A DNA stretch of 64,000 nt from Sorangium aterium (GTDB taxonomy: Bacteria > Myxococcota_A > Polyangia > Polyangiales > Polyangiaceae). Every line of letters begins with the position of its first letter. Position 1 is the stretch's first letter. Under the pieces are notes generated by a model that did no database searches, was not told the DNA's origin, and was given only the letters and a program-made list of their open reading frames with translations. The translations under genes and the position numbers were made by a program. Of this stretch, positions 50,176 to 56,518 are shown piece after piece. The stretch covers positions 2,046,001 to 2,110,000 of the forward strand of contig NZ_JAQNDK010000002.1 of the NCBI RefSeq assembly GCF_028368935.1, written 5' to 3'.

Positions 50176-50422
50176 GCGCCGGGGTGGGGGTGTGCGCGGC
50201 AGCGCGCGGGGGGCGCTGGCCATCCGCCAAGACGGGGGCGGGAGAGCTTGCGCATGAGACACCGCCCGGCATGTCTCACTTCGGGCCTTGCCCTCTGAGA
50301 CGTTTCGTTGCGCGCCACATAAGGCGCGCCTGGGACGTGGAGCCTGCTGGGACCTTATGGCACCTCGTTCGGTGCTCCAGCGCGCCCCCCGCGCGCTGCC
50401 GCGCACACCCCCACCCCGGCGC
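50176..50422. repeat. Perfect 41-bp inverted repeat flanking 165 bp
   Basis: Left arm 50176-50216 and right arm 50382-50422 are exact reverse complements over 41 bp (start GCGCCGGGGTGGGGG). Outside and inside the arms the match continues with a two-base slip. I found no exact target duplication. The 165-bp interior contains a smaller GCGCC/GGCGC dyad but no credible gene. MITE-like relic or extrusion-prone element; also a possible strong transcript end for the kinase gene. Confidence 0.9.
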
Positions 50423-50561: not shown

Positions 50562-50625
50562 GGCAAATTGTTGCCGTGGGCAAAGTGTTGCCTTCAGGGG
50601 AGGGGCCGCCGGGCAAGTCGTTGCC
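50562..50625 (+). promoter_or_regulatory. Three dyads GGCAA-N4-TTGCC, probable activator sites
   Basis: 14-bp dyads at 50562-50575, 50579-50592 and 50612-50625, starts spaced 17 and 33 bp. They lie 67-130 bp before the predicted sigma54 start site, the usual range for enhancer-binding-protein sites. Variation inside the N4 with fixed arms supports a protein site. Confidence 0.7.
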
Positions 50626-50665: not shown

Positions 50666-50681
50666 TGGCATTCTGGTTGCA
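50666..50681 (+). promoter_or_regulatory. sigma54 (RpoN) promoter
   Basis: TGGCATTCTGGTTGCA: GG at -24 and GC at -12 with the required spacing (TGGCA-N6-TTGCA). Predicted start near 50692, giving a leader of about 93 nt to ATG 50785. Confidence 0.75.
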
Positions 50682-50784
50682 ATTCTGGACACAGCATCGC
50701 CCGGATCCCATGACCTGCGCCGATGCGCGGCGCCGGCGGGTCCAGGCGAATGCACAAGGATTTCTCGGAGAGGAGAGCATCGCC

Positions 50785-51567
50785 ATGGCCACGCCCTATC
50801 AGATCAACATTGCGATGGACCAGAACACCTTCAACGCCCTGGAGGCGGGCGGATTTTATCTGTATGGATTCAAGGGGGTGCAGACGAGCATCCAGGGCGG
50901 CGCGCCGCTCGTGTGGTTCCAGACCAAGACCCTCTCCCTGGATACCACCATCTCGTGGGAGGAGCAGTATCAGGGGTACACCTCGCAGAGCGCCATCATT
51001 CCCGGCGGCAAGATCAAGGCGAGCGCGTCCTACGACATGAACCTCGGCGACATCCTCCAGGTCACGAGCCCGGCGGGCACGGGCACCGTCGTGACCGGTG
51101 GAACGCAGAACGCGATCTCGATCGCGAACCAGACCACGACGCAGATGGTCTGCGGCATCTCGCAGGTGCAGTCGGTGAGCGGCAGCCCGGTGGCGACGCC
51201 CCTCTGCGCCTTCCCGCTTTACGGCAACATGCTGGACGTCTTCGCGCCCATCCAGCTCGTCTTGCTGGAGTTCGCCACGACGGCGGTGAACACGGGGACG
51301 GTCATCTTCCAGGCGTTCAGCCAGGCCGCCCTGATCAACCTCACCAGCGAGCCCGAGGTCTCGTTGAGCTTCGACATCAACACAGGCTGGAACTCCAGCG
51401 GCAACCCGAACGTACAGCTCGTCCCCGCGGGCGCCAACCTCGCGCCGCTCCTGCTCCAGTCGTCCGCCAGCCTGAACCGAAGGATCCTCGCGGCGCAAAG
51501 CGCCCACGCGCCGGCGCAGGAGGCGCGCCACGCCTCCCGCAGCAATGGCGGCCTGATCCAGGCCTGA
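50785..51567 (+). CDS. Protein of unknown family, first gene of sigma54 cluster
   Basis: 260 residues from ATG 50785 behind AGGAGAG. No signal peptide. Predominantly beta, with landmarks FYLYGFKGV, GAPLVWFQTKTLSLDTTISW, KASASYDMNLGDILQV, NAISIANQTTT, CGISQ, FPLYGNMLDVF and DINTGWN. The same landmarks in the same order occur in the next gene's product, so the two define one family. Hydrophobic but without transmembrane helices. The last 25 residues are basic and Ala/His/Ser-rich. I do not recognise a database family. Expression is predicted to be RpoN-dependent. Confidence 0.8.
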   Translation: MATPYQINIAMDQNTFNALEAGGFYLYGFKGVQTSIQGGAPLVWFQTKTLSLDTTISWEEQYQGYTSQSAIIPGGKIKASASYDMNLGDILQVTSPAGTGTVVTGGTQNAISIANQTTTQMVCGISQVQSVSGSPVATPLCAFPLYGNMLDVFAPIQLVLLEFATTAVNTGTVIFQAFSQAALINLTSEPEVSLSFDINTGWNSSGNPNVQLVPAGANLAPLLLQSSASLNRRILAAQSAHAPAQEARHASRSNGGLIQA

Positions 51568-51645
51568 CGTGGCGCCCGCGGGGCGACCGGCTGCCAGTTC
51601 ACCCTCCGCGGTCGGGCGACGAGCGCGACGCGGCAAGGAGGCCTC

Positions 51646-52476
51646 ATGCGACGACCTCTTCGTGGACAGGCAGCGCTCGTCGCCGCGTCGTTGCTGTCCC
51701 TCACGTGCGGCACGGGTCTCAGGACGCCGGACGAGCGGCCAGGCGCGGCGACATCGAAGGCCGCGCGCGTCGACAAAGCCGCTCCGCCCATTTCCCCCTC
51801 AGCGCCGACCGAGAGACGGCTGATCGTCTCCATGAGCGCCGAGACGGCGCGCGCGCTCGCCGCCTCTGCGATTTCGCTGTACGCGTTCAAAGCGGTGGGC
51901 GCGGAGGACGCCGCCGGCGTGCCGCTCGTGTGGTTCCAATCGAGGACCTACTCCCTCACCACGACCCTGTCGTGGGCGGCGCTCTATCGGGCCTACACCG
52001 CGACCCGCACGCTCCTGCCGTCTGCCCGGGTGGACGCCTCGGCCTCGTACGACATCGATCCCGGACAGGTGCTGTACGTGCAGGAGCCGACGGGCACCGG
52101 CGTCGTGCTCCTCGGGGGACCGGCGAACGCCATTTCGATACAGAACGACACGTCGACGCCGTTCACCTGTGGCCTCGCGCAGCGCCTCGGCGAGACCGCC
52201 GCGCCCATCGCCTCCTTTCCGCTCCATGGCAAGAGCCGCCAGGTCTTCTACCCCATGGAGACGGTGCTCCTCGTCGTCGCGGCGTCGAGGCTCCGCCCCG
52301 GCGACCCGGCCACCACGTCGCCGGGGCCAGGCGTGCTCGTGGAGCTGGGCCAGGAGAGCACCCGCCGGCTCGCGTTCGAGATCAATGAGGGGTGGAGCTG
52401 GGGCTCCGAGCCCTGGGCCACGGCCGTGTCGGCCGGCGCGGACATCCTCCCCCTGCTCGTCGTCCGGAGCCCCTGA
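51646..52476 (+). CDS. Lipoprotein paralogue of the preceding protein
   Basis: 276 residues from ATG 51646 behind AAGGAGG. Signal LVAASLLSLTC (Cys21; the -1 Thr is unusual but acceptable), a 30-residue linker, then the same domain as the upstream gene: LYAFKAVG, GVPLVWFQSRTYSLTTTLSW, DASASYDIDPGQVLYV, NAISIQNDTST, CGLAQ, FPLHGKSRQVF, EINEGWSWG. So one copy is predicted on a membrane surface and one without a signal. Gap of 78 nt from the first gene and 98 nt to the third. Function unknown. Confidence 0.8.
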   Translation: MRRPLRGQAALVAASLLSLTCGTGLRTPDERPGAATSKAARVDKAAPPISPSAPTERRLIVSMSAETARALAASAISLYAFKAVGAEDAAGVPLVWFQSRTYSLTTTLSWAALYRAYTATRTLLPSARVDASASYDIDPGQVLYVQEPTGTGVVLLGGPANAISIQNDTSTPFTCGLAQRLGETAAPIASFPLHGKSRQVFYPMETVLLVVAASRLRPGDPATTSPGPGVLVELGQESTRRLAFEINEGWSWGSEPWATAVSAGADILPLLVVRSP

Positions 52477-52574
52477 AGGACGATGTCTTGGCATCGACGT
52501 TGCTATTCACTGCCATCGCGTGTTGCACCCGCACGACCTGTTCGTCGTGCCTTTCTACAAGACAGGAGACAACC

Positions 52575-52898
52575 ATGGCCGTCGTCAATATCCCGCCCAA
52601 TCAGGTCATCTACAAGCTCGGCCCCATCCCCGGGACGATGCACGTCTACAACACCGGCAACCCCGGAGGCGGCGCGACCACCTACAACATCACCATTCTC
52701 AACGTCGGCGTCTGGACCGACGTCGTCATCCAGACGGGCCACACCGACACCTACCAGCCCAACGGCAACGTCGTCTTCGTCCAGAACCTTGGGCCGAGCA
52801 GGCTCCAGGTCCTCTACGTGGAGAGCGAATTGACGGTCGAGCAGGCGGGCGGCCGCTCCGTGAAGGAGTTCCCCGTGCTCGACGCGCCCGCTGGCTAG
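52575..52898 (+). CDS. Small beta-rich protein of unknown function, third gene of the cluster
   Basis: 107 residues from ATG 52575 behind CAGGAGA. No signal peptide or membrane segment. Alternating hydrophobic/polar strands (HVYNTGNPGGGATTYNITILN, VGVWTDVVIQTGHTDTYQ, VVFVQNLGPSRLQVLYVESELTVE) suggest a small beta-sandwich or jelly roll. No family recognised. It ends the cluster, facing the convergent zinc-cluster gene. Confidence 0.72.
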   Translation: MAVVNIPPNQVIYKLGPIPGTMHVYNTGNPGGGATTYNITILNVGVWTDVVIQTGHTDTYQPNGNVVFVQNLGPSRLQVLYVESELTVEQAGGRSVKEFPVLDAPAG

Positions 52899-53033: not shown

Positions 53034-54128
53034 TCAGCGCCGCTTCGCGCACGCCGGGCACGCGATGCGGCCCTGCGCGTTCGGCGCGCACGCCTCGCAG
53101 AGCAGGTGCATCCGATCGTCGCACGCCGCCGGCCGCGCCGTCGCCGCGGCGCACGCCTCGCACGTGAGCCTGTCCAGGCTCGAAGCGCCCGCCGGGAGCC
53201 GCAAGACGATGTCCCGCGCCTCCTTGCGCCGCCGGAGACGCATGTTCACGAGCGCCGTCGGGACCTCGGCGCTCACCAGCGCGGCGACCGAACACGTCAC
53301 CTTCGCCGCGAACCGCGCGGGCAAGGCCTCGAGCTTCGCGTTCCGCTCGGCGACGAGGTGCGCGACCTTGGCCTCGACCGCCTTCGGATCCGCGCGCCGC
53401 CGCGGCGCCCGCGCCTCGGCGATCAGGTCCGCGAAATACGACACAATACGATCGTGATCCCGCGCATGCCTGCGCTCGACCTCGCCGAGCAGCGGTTGCA
53501 CCGCAGCCCGCACCGCCCGCTCGGCGCGGAGCGCGATCCAGTCCGCCGTGCGATCGTCCGTCGAGAGGGAAACGGCGCTCGGCAGCACGAGAGCGCTCGG
53601 CCAGGCGAGATCCAGGCGCGAGCCCACCGCAGCGTCCGGCTCGCCGCCGTCATGCGCGTTCAGCACGACCCGCACGAGCCCCTCGCGCCGGTCGTCGGCC
53701 TCGACACCATAAGCGACGCTGGCAGCGACGTAGACCGCCGTGCCCGTGGAGATCTGGCCGGGCTCACAGAGCCCGTTGCGCAGCACGAAGCGGTCCGCGG
53801 CGGCCCGCACGTGGGCAGGTCGCGGCGGATCCGCGGCGAGCCGCACCGAGGTGGACACGGGCCGCCCACGCGCCCTCGCGATCAACCGCTCTAGCAGCGT
53901 CGAGCCAAGGCCGCATGCGACGTCCCCGTCCCGATCGGGGTAGAGCGCGAGGGCGCACTCCTCCGCAACCTCGATCTCGGCCGCGAGCTGCGCCGGCAGG
54001 AGCGCTACCGCCCGCGCGTCGTCCCGCTCGGCGAGCGCTCCGGCCTCCGCGAGCGCCTCGACCACGAAATCGAGCGGAGAGGGCAGCGCGCCCTCCGCGG
54101 GCGAGAGCATTCCCAGCGCCGCGGTCAC
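53034..54128 (-). CDS. Helicase-partner protein with C-terminal zinc-cluster
   Basis: 364 residues, starting at ATG 54128 with a 4-nt overlap to the helicase stop. The middle (about 210-285) is a charged helical segment (AERAVRAAVQPLLGEVERRHARDHDRIVSYFADLIAEA), like the tail that follows helicase lobe 2 in bacterial RapA/SNF2 proteins. The C-terminus has eight Cys in CxxC-type pairs (LTCEACAAA, PAACDD, LLCEACA, IACPACAKRR), a probable structural zinc cluster. It probably acts as a detached C-terminal part of the helicase. No enzyme motif seen. Confidence 0.75.
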   Translation of the reverse strand: MTAALGMLSPAEGALPSPLDFVVEALAEAGALAERDDARAVALLPAQLAAEIEVAEECALALYPDRDGDVACGLGSTLLERLIARARGRPVSTSVRLAADPPRPAHVRAAADRFVLRNGLCEPGQISTGTAVYVAASVAYGVEADDRREGLVRVVLNAHDGGEPDAAVGSRLDLAWPSALVLPSAVSLSTDDRTADWIALRAERAVRAAVQPLLGEVERRHARDHDRIVSYFADLIAEARAPRRRADPKAVEAKVAHLVAERNAKLEALPARFAAKVTCSVAALVSAEVPTALVNMRLRRRKEARDIVLRLPAGASSLDRLTCEACAAATARPAACDDRMHLLCEACAPNAQGRIACPACAKRR

Positions 54129-56518
54129 GCCTCGTAGTCCTTTCCAAAGAGCTTGGCGTCGAGGCGCTTCACCTGCTCGTAACGCCCGCGCGCCGCGGCG
54201 AGCTCCTCGGCGATGGCGTCGAAGCCGCTCGCGATCTCCTCCTCCGAGCGCGACGTCGCGTAGAGGGAGACAATCCGCTCCTCCAGGTCGCGCTCGTCCG
54301 CCATGTTGCCAAGGACCATATCCATCTCGCCCACGACCAGCTCGAACAGGTGCAGGCGGCGGTCGAGCAGATCGAGGACACGCTCCTCGGCGGTGCCGCG
54401 CGCGCAGAGGTTGTAGACGCGCACCTCCTCTCGCTGGCCCATCCGGTGCAATCGCCCGATCCGCTGCTCGATGAGCATGGGGTTGTAGGGAAGATCGAAG
54501 TTCACGAGGACATGGCAGTGATGGAGGTTATGCCCCTCGCCGCCGGCGTCGGTGGACACGAGCACACGCGCGCGGCCGTCGCGGAACGCCGAGAGCGCCG
54601 CGCGCTTGTCCGCCGCGGAGAGACCGCCGTGGAACGCCACGGGCTCGATGCCTGCACCGCGGAGCGCGGCCTCGATGTACGAGAGAGAGTCGCGAAACCG
54701 GGTGAAGACGAGGATCTGCTCGTGGTGAGCGCGCGCGAGATCGACGAGCGCAACGCCCTTCCGGGACGCGCGGACCGAGGCGGCGAGCTCCGCGATGGCG
54801 GCGAGCGCGGCGCGCAGCGCGGGGGCGCGCCGCTCGCTCGCGCTCATGCGCTCTAGGCTGCCGCGCACCGCGGCGGGGCTCGAGCCGGCGCCGAGCAGGA
54901 GCGTCGAGGCCAGCATCCGGGAGCCGGCGTCGGCCCCGTGCGCGCGCACGAGGGCGAGGACGCGTTCGTAGAGCTCTTGCTCCTCCGGGAGCGGCTCGAC
55001 CATCGCCGTGCTCACGTAACGGGGCGGCAGCGCGAGGCCGCTGTCGGCGCGGGTGTTGCGCACCATCACCTCGGCGAGCAGGGAGCGCAGCCGCTCCCGG
55101 TTCTTCGGCGACAGCGGGTCCTTCGGGTCGACGAACTGCGCGCGGAAGGCCCCCGTGGTCGCGAACTGCCCGGGCTTGAGCAGCGTCACGAGGTTGTAGA
55201 GCTCCTCGAGATCGGTCTCGATCGGCGTCGCCGTGAGCATCAGGAGGAACCGGCTTTGCAGGCCGTCGACCAGCTTGAAGCCGGCGGTCGTGCGGTTCTT
55301 GACGTGATGGGCCTCGTCGACGATCACGAGGTCCCACGAGGCGGCCTGGACGAGCGGCGCGTGCTTCGCGCTCCTCGCGAGGGCGAGCGACGCGACGATC
55401 ACGCCCTCATCGCGCCAGAAGGCCTCGGGATCCGCCGTGCGCGCGGCGTCGTCGGTCGTGCGCGCGGCGATCCCGGCCTTCTCCGCGAGCTCTCCCGTCC
55501 ACTGGCCGACGAGCGCAGGGGGGACGAGGACGAGCGCCCGCCGGACCATCCCGCGGAGCTGGTACTCGCGCAGGATCGTCAGCGCCTCGACCGTCTTGCC
55601 GAGCCCGACCTCGTCGGCGAGCAGCGCGCGCCCACGGAACACGCGGAGGACGCGGCGCGCGGTCTCGATCTGGTAGCGGTGCGGCTCGACCCCGGTGAGC
55701 GCGGCGAGCGCGAGCAGCTCCTCGAACTGCTCGGCCGAGGCGAGCAGGTGCGCGCGCAGCGCGTGGCTCACCGCCGCAAGCGAGGACGGCGGGCCCGCGA
55801 GCCGTTGGAGCAGCTCGGATCGGTCGAGGCCCGATATCAGGAGCGGCGCCGGCTTTCTGGGCGGCGGCGCCGGCAGAGGAGCCGGCTCGGGCGAGAGCGC
55901 CGGCTCCACCACGCCGGAGGGAGCGGGCGGCCGGGAGGCGGCGGGCGGCCGGGAGGCGGCGGGCGGCCGGGAGGCGGCGGGCGCAGCGCGCAGGCCGGCG
56001 GCGCGGGCGCGCGCGGGGCGCTCCGGGGTCGGGGTGGTGGGGGGACTTCGTGGCGGCGCAGCGGGCGCTTCGGTCCGTCGAGCCCGCGCGGGTGAGCGGG
56101 CCTGAGCGCGGGTGACAGGGCGCTCCGGGGGCGGCGGCCGCTCCGCGCGATGAGCCAGGAGGAGCCGCTGGACGTCGTGACGAAAGACGAGCTGCCCCAG
56201 CCGGCGCGGGATACCGATGTTGCGGTCGATGCAGAACGTGCTCGCGTTGTAGGCAAGGAACGCCGGATCCGCGCTCGTCGATTCGCGTATCCGCTCGATG
56301 AGCGCGCTGCCCGCGAGCGCCCGTGGAAGGCCGTGCGCGAGGAGAAGGTCATGCGCCTCGTCGAGCGTCAGCGGCTCCTGGTGCGACCGGCCCGAGAGCG
56401 CGAACGCCAAGGTGAAGAGATCAGCGCCGGAGAGCAGCCGATTGGCCGCCTCCGTGGCGAGCAGCCAGTTCACGTCGCTTGCGGAGATCGACGTGATGGG
56501 CGTCGTCGAGACCTGCAT
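54125..56518 (-). CDS. SNF2/RapA-like DEAD-box-type helicase
   Basis: 797 residues. An N-terminal domain (about 1-120) and a Pro/Arg linker with an 18-bp in-frame repeat (AASRPP units, about 180-200) precede the motor: LLADEVGLGKTVEAL (Walker A Lys308), VIVDEAHHVKN (DEAH), MLTATPIET (motif III), LVFTRFRDSL, LVSTDAGGEGHNLHHC and IEQRIGRLHRMGQ (motifs V and VI). All ATPase motifs are intact. The Q-x-R-x-G-R-x-x-R-x-G-Q motif is typical of SNF2 remodellers and RapA. It probably works on nucleoprotein or stalled polymerase together with the overlapping zinc-cluster partner. No methylase or nuclease is nearby. Confidence 0.9.
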   Translation of the reverse strand: MQVSTTPITSISASDVNWLLATEAANRLLSGADLFTLAFALSGRSHQEPLTLDEAHDLLLAHGLPRALAGSALIERIRESTSADPAFLAYNASTFCIDRNIGIPRRLGQLVFRHDVQRLLLAHRAERPPPPERPVTRAQARSPARARRTEAPAAPPRSPPTTPTPERPARARAAGLRAAPAASRPPAASRPPAASRPPAPSGVVEPALSPEPAPLPAPPPRKPAPLLISGLDRSELLQRLAGPPSSLAAVSHALRAHLLASAEQFEELLALAALTGVEPHRYQIETARRVLRVFRGRALLADEVGLGKTVEALTILREYQLRGMVRRALVLVPPALVGQWTGELAEKAGIAARTTDDAARTADPEAFWRDEGVIVASLALARSAKHAPLVQAASWDLVIVDEAHHVKNRTTAGFKLVDGLQSRFLLMLTATPIETDLEELYNLVTLLKPGQFATTGAFRAQFVDPKDPLSPKNRERLRSLLAEVMVRNTRADSGLALPPRYVSTAMVEPLPEEQELYERVLALVRAHGADAGSRMLASTLLLGAGSSPAAVRGSLERMSASERRAPALRAALAAIAELAASVRASRKGVALVDLARAHHEQILVFTRFRDSLSYIEAALRGAGIEPVAFHGGLSAADKRAALSAFRDGRARVLVSTDAGGEGHNLHHCHVLVNFDLPYNPMLIEQRIGRLHRMGQREEVRVYNLCARGTAEERVLDLLDRRLHLFELVVGEMDMVLGNMADERDLEERIVSLYATSRSEEEIASGFDAIAEELAAARGRYEQVKRLDAKLFGKDYEA

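What the first reader, a model, noticed from the sequence alone, without database searches (positions are those of the whole stretch)
50666..52898. sigma54-driven cluster of three unrecognised proteins
Seen: a near-perfect -24/-12 promoter (TGGCA-N6-TTGCA) is followed by three well-spaced genes with strong ribosome sites (260, 276 and 107 residues) whose families I do not recognise. Known: RpoN promoters in myxobacteria often drive development or surface-stress genes. Inference: a co-regulated secreted or surface system not yet described.
Basis: partly seen in the sequence, partly recalled or inferred. Interest (0 to 1): 0.8.

Follow-up and report, generated by a model that had tools for sequence, protein, structure and literature searches.

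The report
σ54-controlled three-gene beta-protein cassette
A soil myxobacterium switches on, from a rare class of bacterial promoter, a set of three genes whose first two encode sister proteins of a widespread family that no database yet names, and the DNA sites and the candidate switch protein that control it can be read from its relatives.

Summary
An exact −24/−12 (σ54) element lies at 50666-50681, followed by three genes of 260, 276 and 107 codons. It is more than chance: three copies of a dyad, GGCAA-N4-TTGCC, sit just upstream, and the whole promoter (dyads plus −24/−12) recurs in another myxobacterial genus. There the target genes lie beside an FHA-domain σ54 activator and a Ser/Thr kinase. 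The closest copy of that activator in this genome has the genome's only other close dyad pair just upstream, shared with a divergent mannan-binding (MVL) lectin lipoprotein gene that has its own −24/−12 element.

The first two proteins are paralogues (39% identity) of a family without any Pfam, NCBIfam or PDB match. The tandem pair occurs in 17 of 18 further loci from one genome scan (Pseudomonadota, one actinobacterium). In eight loci a ~80-aa gene lies between them, to which the third protein is a probable, divergent relative. The predicted P1 fold is confident (pLDDT 91), all-beta, without a significant match.

Regulation is well supported. A surface or binding function is only inferred: P2 has a signal-peptide-like start, P1 and P3 do not. 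σ54 control is a myxobacterial feature, not a family trait.

The parts
50562..50575 (.). dyad 1, GGCAAATTGTTGCC: proposed upstream activating site for an FHA-type sigma54 activator
   Evidence: aligned with the G370/G446 promoter
50579..50592 (.). dyad 2, GGCAAAGTGTTGCC: proposed upstream activating site
50612..50625 (.). dyad 3, GGCAAGTCGTTGCC: proposed upstream activating site
50666..50681 (+). -24/-12 (sigma54) promoter TGGCATTCTGGTTGCA; expected transcript start about 50692 (inferred from the usual 12-nt distance), leader of about 93 nt
50785..51567 (+). P1: 260-aa all-beta protein, first of the paralogue pair, no signal peptide, two conserved cysteines (C123, C141)
51646..52476 (+). P2: 276-aa paralogue of P1 with an N-terminal signal-peptide-like stretch (ALVAASLLSLTC, possible but atypical lipobox)
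52575..52898 (+). P3: 107-aa protein, probable divergent relative of the ~80-aa protein encoded between P1 and P2 genes in other bacteria
   Evidence: low-confidence beta model

Best explanation
A sigma54-dependent operon of a three-protein beta cassette. An FHA-domain enhancer-binding protein (in this genome most likely the one encoded at G000 C2:750844-752718), switched by a Ser/Thr kinase, binds the three GGCAA-N4-TTGCC dyads about 73-123 bp upstream of the start and activates sigma54 RNA polymerase at TGGCATTCTGGTTGCA (site architecture shown by comparison; binding, phosphorylation and activation inferred). The operon makes P1 and P2, two paralogous beta-sandwich proteins that act as a pair (pairing shown by gene order across three phyla, a physical complex inferred), plus a small beta protein, P3, of the kind that accompanies the pair elsewhere (relation probable). 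P2 is exported and probably anchored in the envelope while P1 and P3 lack a Sec signal, so I think the trio forms a surface or extracellular binding layer or complex, released or assembled in the way of myxobacterial surface proteins without signal peptides (inferred). It belongs to the same regulon as a mannan-binding (MVL) lectin lipoprotein (inferred from shared sites).
For: Promoter: exact -24/-12 and three exact dyads, not reproduced by shuffling. Same promoter, dyads at 17- and 34-35-bp steps then TGGCATGCGGATTGCT, in G370 and G446 of another genus; two dyads and TGGCACGAGCCTTGAT in G008. In G370, G446 and G008 the P1-family genes lie between an FHA-sigma54-activator gene and a kinase-AAA-TPR gene. 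The best copy of that activator in this genome (63% identity) lies at C2:750844-752718; the only other close dyad pair of the genome (C2:750457 and 750499) lies between it and a divergent lipoprotein gene with three MVL repeats (Pfam E 2.6e-45) that has TGGCACGCAGGCTGCA at the right place. Relatives with the cassette but without a close activator copy (G001, G024) have no dyads there. Trio: pair in tandem in 17 of 18 independent genome-contig loci and in Skermanella plasmids; small gene between the pair in eight loci; P3 is the top outsider of that small-protein profile (E 0.0055 among 1,721 frames, next unrelated 1.1). Extracytoplasmic place: C123/C141 co-occur in 27 of 40 proteins (Fisher P 0.0014) and lie opposite each other in a predicted hairpin.
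Against: P1 and P3 have no signal peptide and most relatives of P1 and P2 have none. Sigma54 sites and dyads are not found upstream of the family outside myxobacteria, so regulation says little about the family's function. The -12 element in G008 is TTGA, and two of the three G004 promoters are weak. In G370 the first gene behind the same promoter is a different protein, and the P1 relative comes second. In this genome the activator is not next to the cassette, and which of the many (dozens) sigma54 activators acts here is inferred. P3's relation to the small proteins is near the limit of detection, and its model is poor (pLDDT 61). No fold match gives a function.
Confidence: 0.6

Rival explanations
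1. The promoter reading is right, but the trio works inside the cell: a stress- or conflict-induced complex of beta proteins placed under whatever sensor is at hand (kinase/FHA activator, AAA-ATPase with TPR, cyclase-AAA, AraC, XRE, LuxR-type response regulator), in the manner of inducible defence or stress genes.
For: No Sec signal in P1, P3 and most relatives. The cassette is patchily spread, on plasmids too, and its neighbours are recurrently large signalling ATPases (AAA_16) and AraC regulators of different types. One neighbour has a Pycsar-like cyclase domain.
Against: No PADLOC or significant PHROG match for the three proteins. The conserved cysteine pair fits an oxidising compartment better. 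P2 here, and the second copy in G008, start with a signal-like stretch. The regulon partner in this genome is a lectin lipoprotein.
Confidence: 0.2
2. A multi-component secreted effector used against other organisms: P1, P2 and the small protein combine into a complex that binds a target surface and acts there, with exchangeable N-terminal parts on P1.
For: Conserved paralogue pair; P1 relatives carry different N-terminal domains in different lineages; presence on plasmids of Vibrio coralliilyticus and rhizobia; myxobacteria are predators (general knowledge).
Against: No match of the P1 model to any pore-former or enzyme above background. No recurrent secretion genes beside the cassette; the ABC/HlyD pair was seen only in Skermanella rosea. 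Nothing tested shows an activity.
Confidence: 0.12
3. The dyads bind an ordinary repressor or another activator and the -24/-12 match is coincidental; the real promoter is of another type.
For: The exact -24/-12 pattern is hardly over-represented genome-wide (8 against 5), and the dyad GGCAA-N4-TTGCC looks like a -24/-12 site with the spacing one base short.
Against: -24/-12 and dyads are conserved together in another genus; the dyads sit beside the gene of an FHA-sigma54 activator, and a second -24/-12 element is found on the right side there and downstream of a dyad cluster in G004; no sigma70-type promoter was found.
Confidence: 0.08

Closest known systems
FHA-domain sigma54 enhancer-binding proteins of Myxococcus xanthus and their regulon (Jelsbak, Givskov and Kaiser 2005, ref. 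91 of PMC12288465)
   Same: Activator with FHA, sigma54-interaction and Fis-type HTH domains, beside Ser/Thr kinase genes, with -24/-12 promoters and upstream sites.
   Different: A particular subfamily (57% identity or more) found in 6 of 108 genomes of this family; its dyad GGCAA-N4-TTGCC is, as far as I know, not described. I could read only the citation of the 2005 paper, not its text.
Mannan-binding lectin family MVL (PF12151)
   Same: The MVL lipoprotein gene of this genome carries the same dyads and a -24/-12 element, so it is a likely fellow member of the regulon.
   Different: P1, P2 and P3 have no MVL match.
Myxobacterial surface proteins without signal peptides (protein S, myxobacterial haemagglutinin) - from general knowledge
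   Same: Beta-rich, induced proteins without a signal peptide that are found on the cell surface.
   Different: No Pfam match of any kind was found for P1-P3; the resemblance is one of habit only and was not tested.

Membership tests
sigma54 (RpoN)-dependent promoter | GG and GC (-24/-12) ten bases apart in a TGGCA-N6-TTGCA context | tested here: met
sigma54 (RpoN)-dependent promoter | upstream activating sites for an enhancer-binding protein, conserved between species | tested here: met
   three dyads, conserved in G370/G446 together with the promoter; that an activator binds them is inferred
sigma54 (RpoN)-dependent promoter | transcription lost without sigma54 or its activator | not testable with these tools
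   needs 5'-end mapping in mutants
regulon of the FHA-sigma54 activator at G000 C2:750844-752718 | dyads at the cassette where the activator is present and not where it is absent | tested here: met
   dyads in G000, G008, G370, G446 (activator 57% identity or more), none in G001 and G024 (no copy at the threshold). Few and partly related genomes. G445 has the activator, but no cassette or dyad cluster was seen beside it.
P1/P2 paired beta-protein family (defined here) | two paralogues in tandem, P1-type first, same strand | tested here: met
~80-aa small-protein family of the cassette | significant sequence match of P3 to the family | tested here: inconclusive
   up to 29% identity; E 0.0055 with the L060 intermediate included, 2 bits without it; position differs (after P2, not between P1 and P2)
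MVL lectin (PF12151) | MVL repeat | tested here: not met
   no Pfam family at E up to 10 for P1-P3
known anti-phage defence proteins (PADLOC) | match to a PADLOC model | tested here: not met
any solved fold (PDB) | significant structural match of the P1 model | tested here: inconclusive
   best Foldseek E 0.14, best VIA Z 5.4 over 80 residues

The most novel reading that the evidence does not exclude
P1, P2 and the small protein are a hitherto undescribed, horizontally moving three-part beta-protein complex with its own fold, in which one paralogue carries exchangeable N-terminal parts, used by bacteria of at least three phyla and in myxobacteria driven by a kinase, FHA-activator and sigma54 circuit with a new operator (GGCAA-N4-TTGCC).
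Probability: 0.35. Interest if true: 0.8.

Novelty: new variant of a known kind. Interest (0 to 1): 0.6.

Why it matters
It links a concrete operator, a probable activator with its kinase and a set of target genes in large-genome myxobacteria, where hardly any of the many σ54 activators has known targets, so a regulon becomes directly testable. It also defines a conserved, database-orphan paired protein family in Myxococcota, Pseudomonadota and Actinomycetota (a single member in Bacteroidota) with a confident predicted structure that matches nothing significantly.

Tried and rejected
Single-sequence search of P1 in genome contigs found nothing; a wide alignment had no stretch conserved enough; an alignment of close relatives worked. 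Viral contigs and phages: no relatives. PHROGs: only insignificant matches. Pfam on all 40 family members: only two stray weak matches. P3 in 108 genomes of the family and in plasmids: no credible relative. I looked for −24/−12 sites before the cassette in 26 other loci: none convincing; the best are 9 of 11 in two rhizobial loci, so family-wide σ54 control is rejected. The dyad region is not a repeat element of this genome. In G370 the protein ahead of the P1 relative looked to me like a DNase-I-type hydrolase, but it has no Pfam match, so I do not claim it. G031 has 21-bp arrays of the same dyad but no close activator copy; I treat these as unrelated repeats. A fold search for P3 was not run because the model is poor. 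No PDB fold stood above the background for P1, which does not show that the fold is new.

Full report
WHAT IS THERE. The −24/−12 element TGGCATTCTGGTTGCA is at 50666-50681, and three genes follow on the same strand: P1 50785-51567, P2 51646-52476, P3 52575-52898. The gaps are 78 and 98 bp, no terminator-like site was found between the genes, and no σ70-like promoter was found in the region. The exact −24/−12 pattern alone is no proof: 8 matches in the 13.47-Mb genome against 5 for the control pattern.

UPSTREAM SITES. Three perfect dyads GGCAA-N4-TTGCC begin at 50562, 50579 and 50612. Genome-wide there are 16 exact dyads against 10 for the control, so single dyads are background, but three in 64 bp are not: none of 20,000 dinucleotide shuffles of the intergenic region had two, and the two-dyad pattern has 2 hits here with 0 in the control.

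CONSERVATION OF THE PROMOTER. In G370 and G446 (another genus of the same family) a homologous region has dyads at steps of 17 and 34-35 bp (one exact and two with one mismatch) followed by TGGCATGCGGATTGCT; the window has steps of 17 and 33 bp followed by TGGCATTCTGGTTGCA. G008 has two exact dyads, then TGGCACGAGCCTTGAT, before its P1-family pair.

THE ACTIVATOR. In G370, G446 and G008 the P1-family genes lie between a gene for an FHA-σ54-activator-HTH protein and a gene for a Ser/Thr kinase with AAA_16 and TPR parts. In G445 the same two regulator genes are directly adjacent without the cassette. The best copy of the activator in the window's genome (63% identity) is at C2:750844-752718. The only other close dyad pair of this genome, found beforehand, lies just upstream of it, in the gap to a divergent gene for a lipoprotein with three MVL repeats (PF12151, E 2.6e-45). 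On that side there is a −24/−12 element TGGCACGCAGGCTGCA about 100 bp ahead of the lipoprotein's start codon. The dyads were not used to find the activator, so this is an independent check. Among genomes with the cassette, those with a close activator copy (57% identity or more) have the dyads and those without (G001, G024) do not. In G004, which has the activator (79%) but no P1 relative, three multi-dyad clusters lie ahead of other genes; one has a good −24/−12 (TGGCACGCCCACTGCA, ahead of a phosphatidylserine decarboxylase-like gene), the other two weak ones. The kinase-to-FHA step and the binding itself are inferred from what is known of such proteins (M. xanthus FHA activators, cited in PMC12288465).

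THE PROTEINS. P1 and P2 are paralogues (39%). They have no significant match in Pfam, NCBIfam, PHROGs, PADLOC or the PDB. A search with close relatives found 19 loci: Sorangium cellulosum So ce26, Nitrosomonas, rhizobia, Halomonas and Litchfieldella, Methylobacter, Caulobacterales, an Oxalobacteraceae, Chelatococcus, the actinobacterium Nostocoides and a Roseivirga. The So ce26 record has the length and the match of G001. Of the other 18, all but Roseivirga have the pair in tandem, P1-type first (one has three copies), and so do Skermanella plasmids. A single relative is found on R. etli and V. coralliilyticus plasmids. In seven loci, and in R. rhizoryzae, a 78-80-aa gene lies between the two. 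P3 resembles these small proteins in layout and at up to 29% identity; with the R. rhizoryzae intermediate in the profile P3 is the first outsider (E 0.0055 among 1,721 frames; next unrelated 1.1), and no control frame of similar size scores as high in direct alignment. I call this probable, not shown. P1 relatives have different N-terminal extensions in different lineages.

STRUCTURE. The P1 model is confident (pLDDT 91.4, pTM 0.85): an all-beta fold with two long strands (53-67, 149-164). Foldseek gave no significant PDB or viral match (best E 0.14 and 0.055); the structural aligner's best are generic Ig/CnaB-like domains (Z 5.4 over 80 residues). P3's model is poor. Most P1-type proteins have exactly two cysteines, at the places of C123 and C141; over the 40 proteins 27 have both, 7 one and 6 none (Fisher P 0.0014; the sequences are related, so take it as indicative). 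The two residues face each other across a predicted hairpin, which fits a disulphide and an oxidising place.

HOW IT MOST LIKELY WORKS. Shown by sequence: promoter, dyads, operon order, paralogy, conservation of the pair. Inferred: a kinase phosphorylates or engages the FHA activator; it binds the dyads at about −123, −106 and −73 and contacts σ54 polymerase by looping; P1 and P2 pair, with P3 as a small partner; P2's signal-like start places it in the envelope; the set is a surface or extracellular binding complex, made together with an MVL lectin. I put 0.85 on the σ54/activator part, 0.6 on a physical P1-P2 partnership and about 0.45 on an extracytoplasmic role.

NOVELTY. The circuit is a new example of a known kind (FHA-σ54 activators of myxobacteria) with an operator I have not seen described. 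The protein cassette is, as far as these tools show, an unnamed family. Outside myxobacteria it has other regulators nearby (AraC, XRE, AAA_16-TPR, cyclase-AAA, LuxR-type response regulators), so the σ54 control is a local solution.

Noticed in passing
window 50176-50216 and 50382-50422: Perfect 41-nt inverted repeat with 165 nt between the arms, just after the hybrid histidine kinase gene; possible small mobile element or strong hairpin.
   Followed up: partly
L011 4936-5529 (G000 C1:3234.9-3235.5 kb): A second, broken cassette copy in the same genome: 5'-truncated and frameshifted P2-like gene, preceded by a short element with CTAGTACTACAG-like ends, next to the same 211-aa gene and kinase-FGE gene as in So ce26.
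   Followed up: partly
L010 (G001), upstream of 6393 and 4493 on the minus strand; L011 upstream of 4776 on the minus strand: A shared motif TGAAAT-N4-5-GAAATACCC ahead of the P1 gene and of the 211-aa gene, where dyads and a sigma54 site are missing: perhaps another regulator's site.
   Followed up: no
L106 5111-5752 (minus strand): Lipoprotein with three MVL mannan-binding repeats, divergent from the FHA-sigma54 activator gene and sharing dyads and a -24/-12 element.
   Followed up: yes
G031 contigs C117, C525, C598: Arrays of GGCAACGCCTTGCC-type dyads at 21-bp steps in a related genome without a close activator copy.
   Followed up: no
window 54125-56518 (minus strand): A helicase-like gene downstream of the trio has a relative beside the cassette of Chelatococcus albus (L079 2568-4094, minus strand); probably chance.
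   Followed up: no
L066, L069, L059, L055, L056: Large AAA_16 signalling ATPases (with cyclase, HTH, kinase or TPR parts) recur beside the cassette in unrelated lineages.
   Followed up: partly
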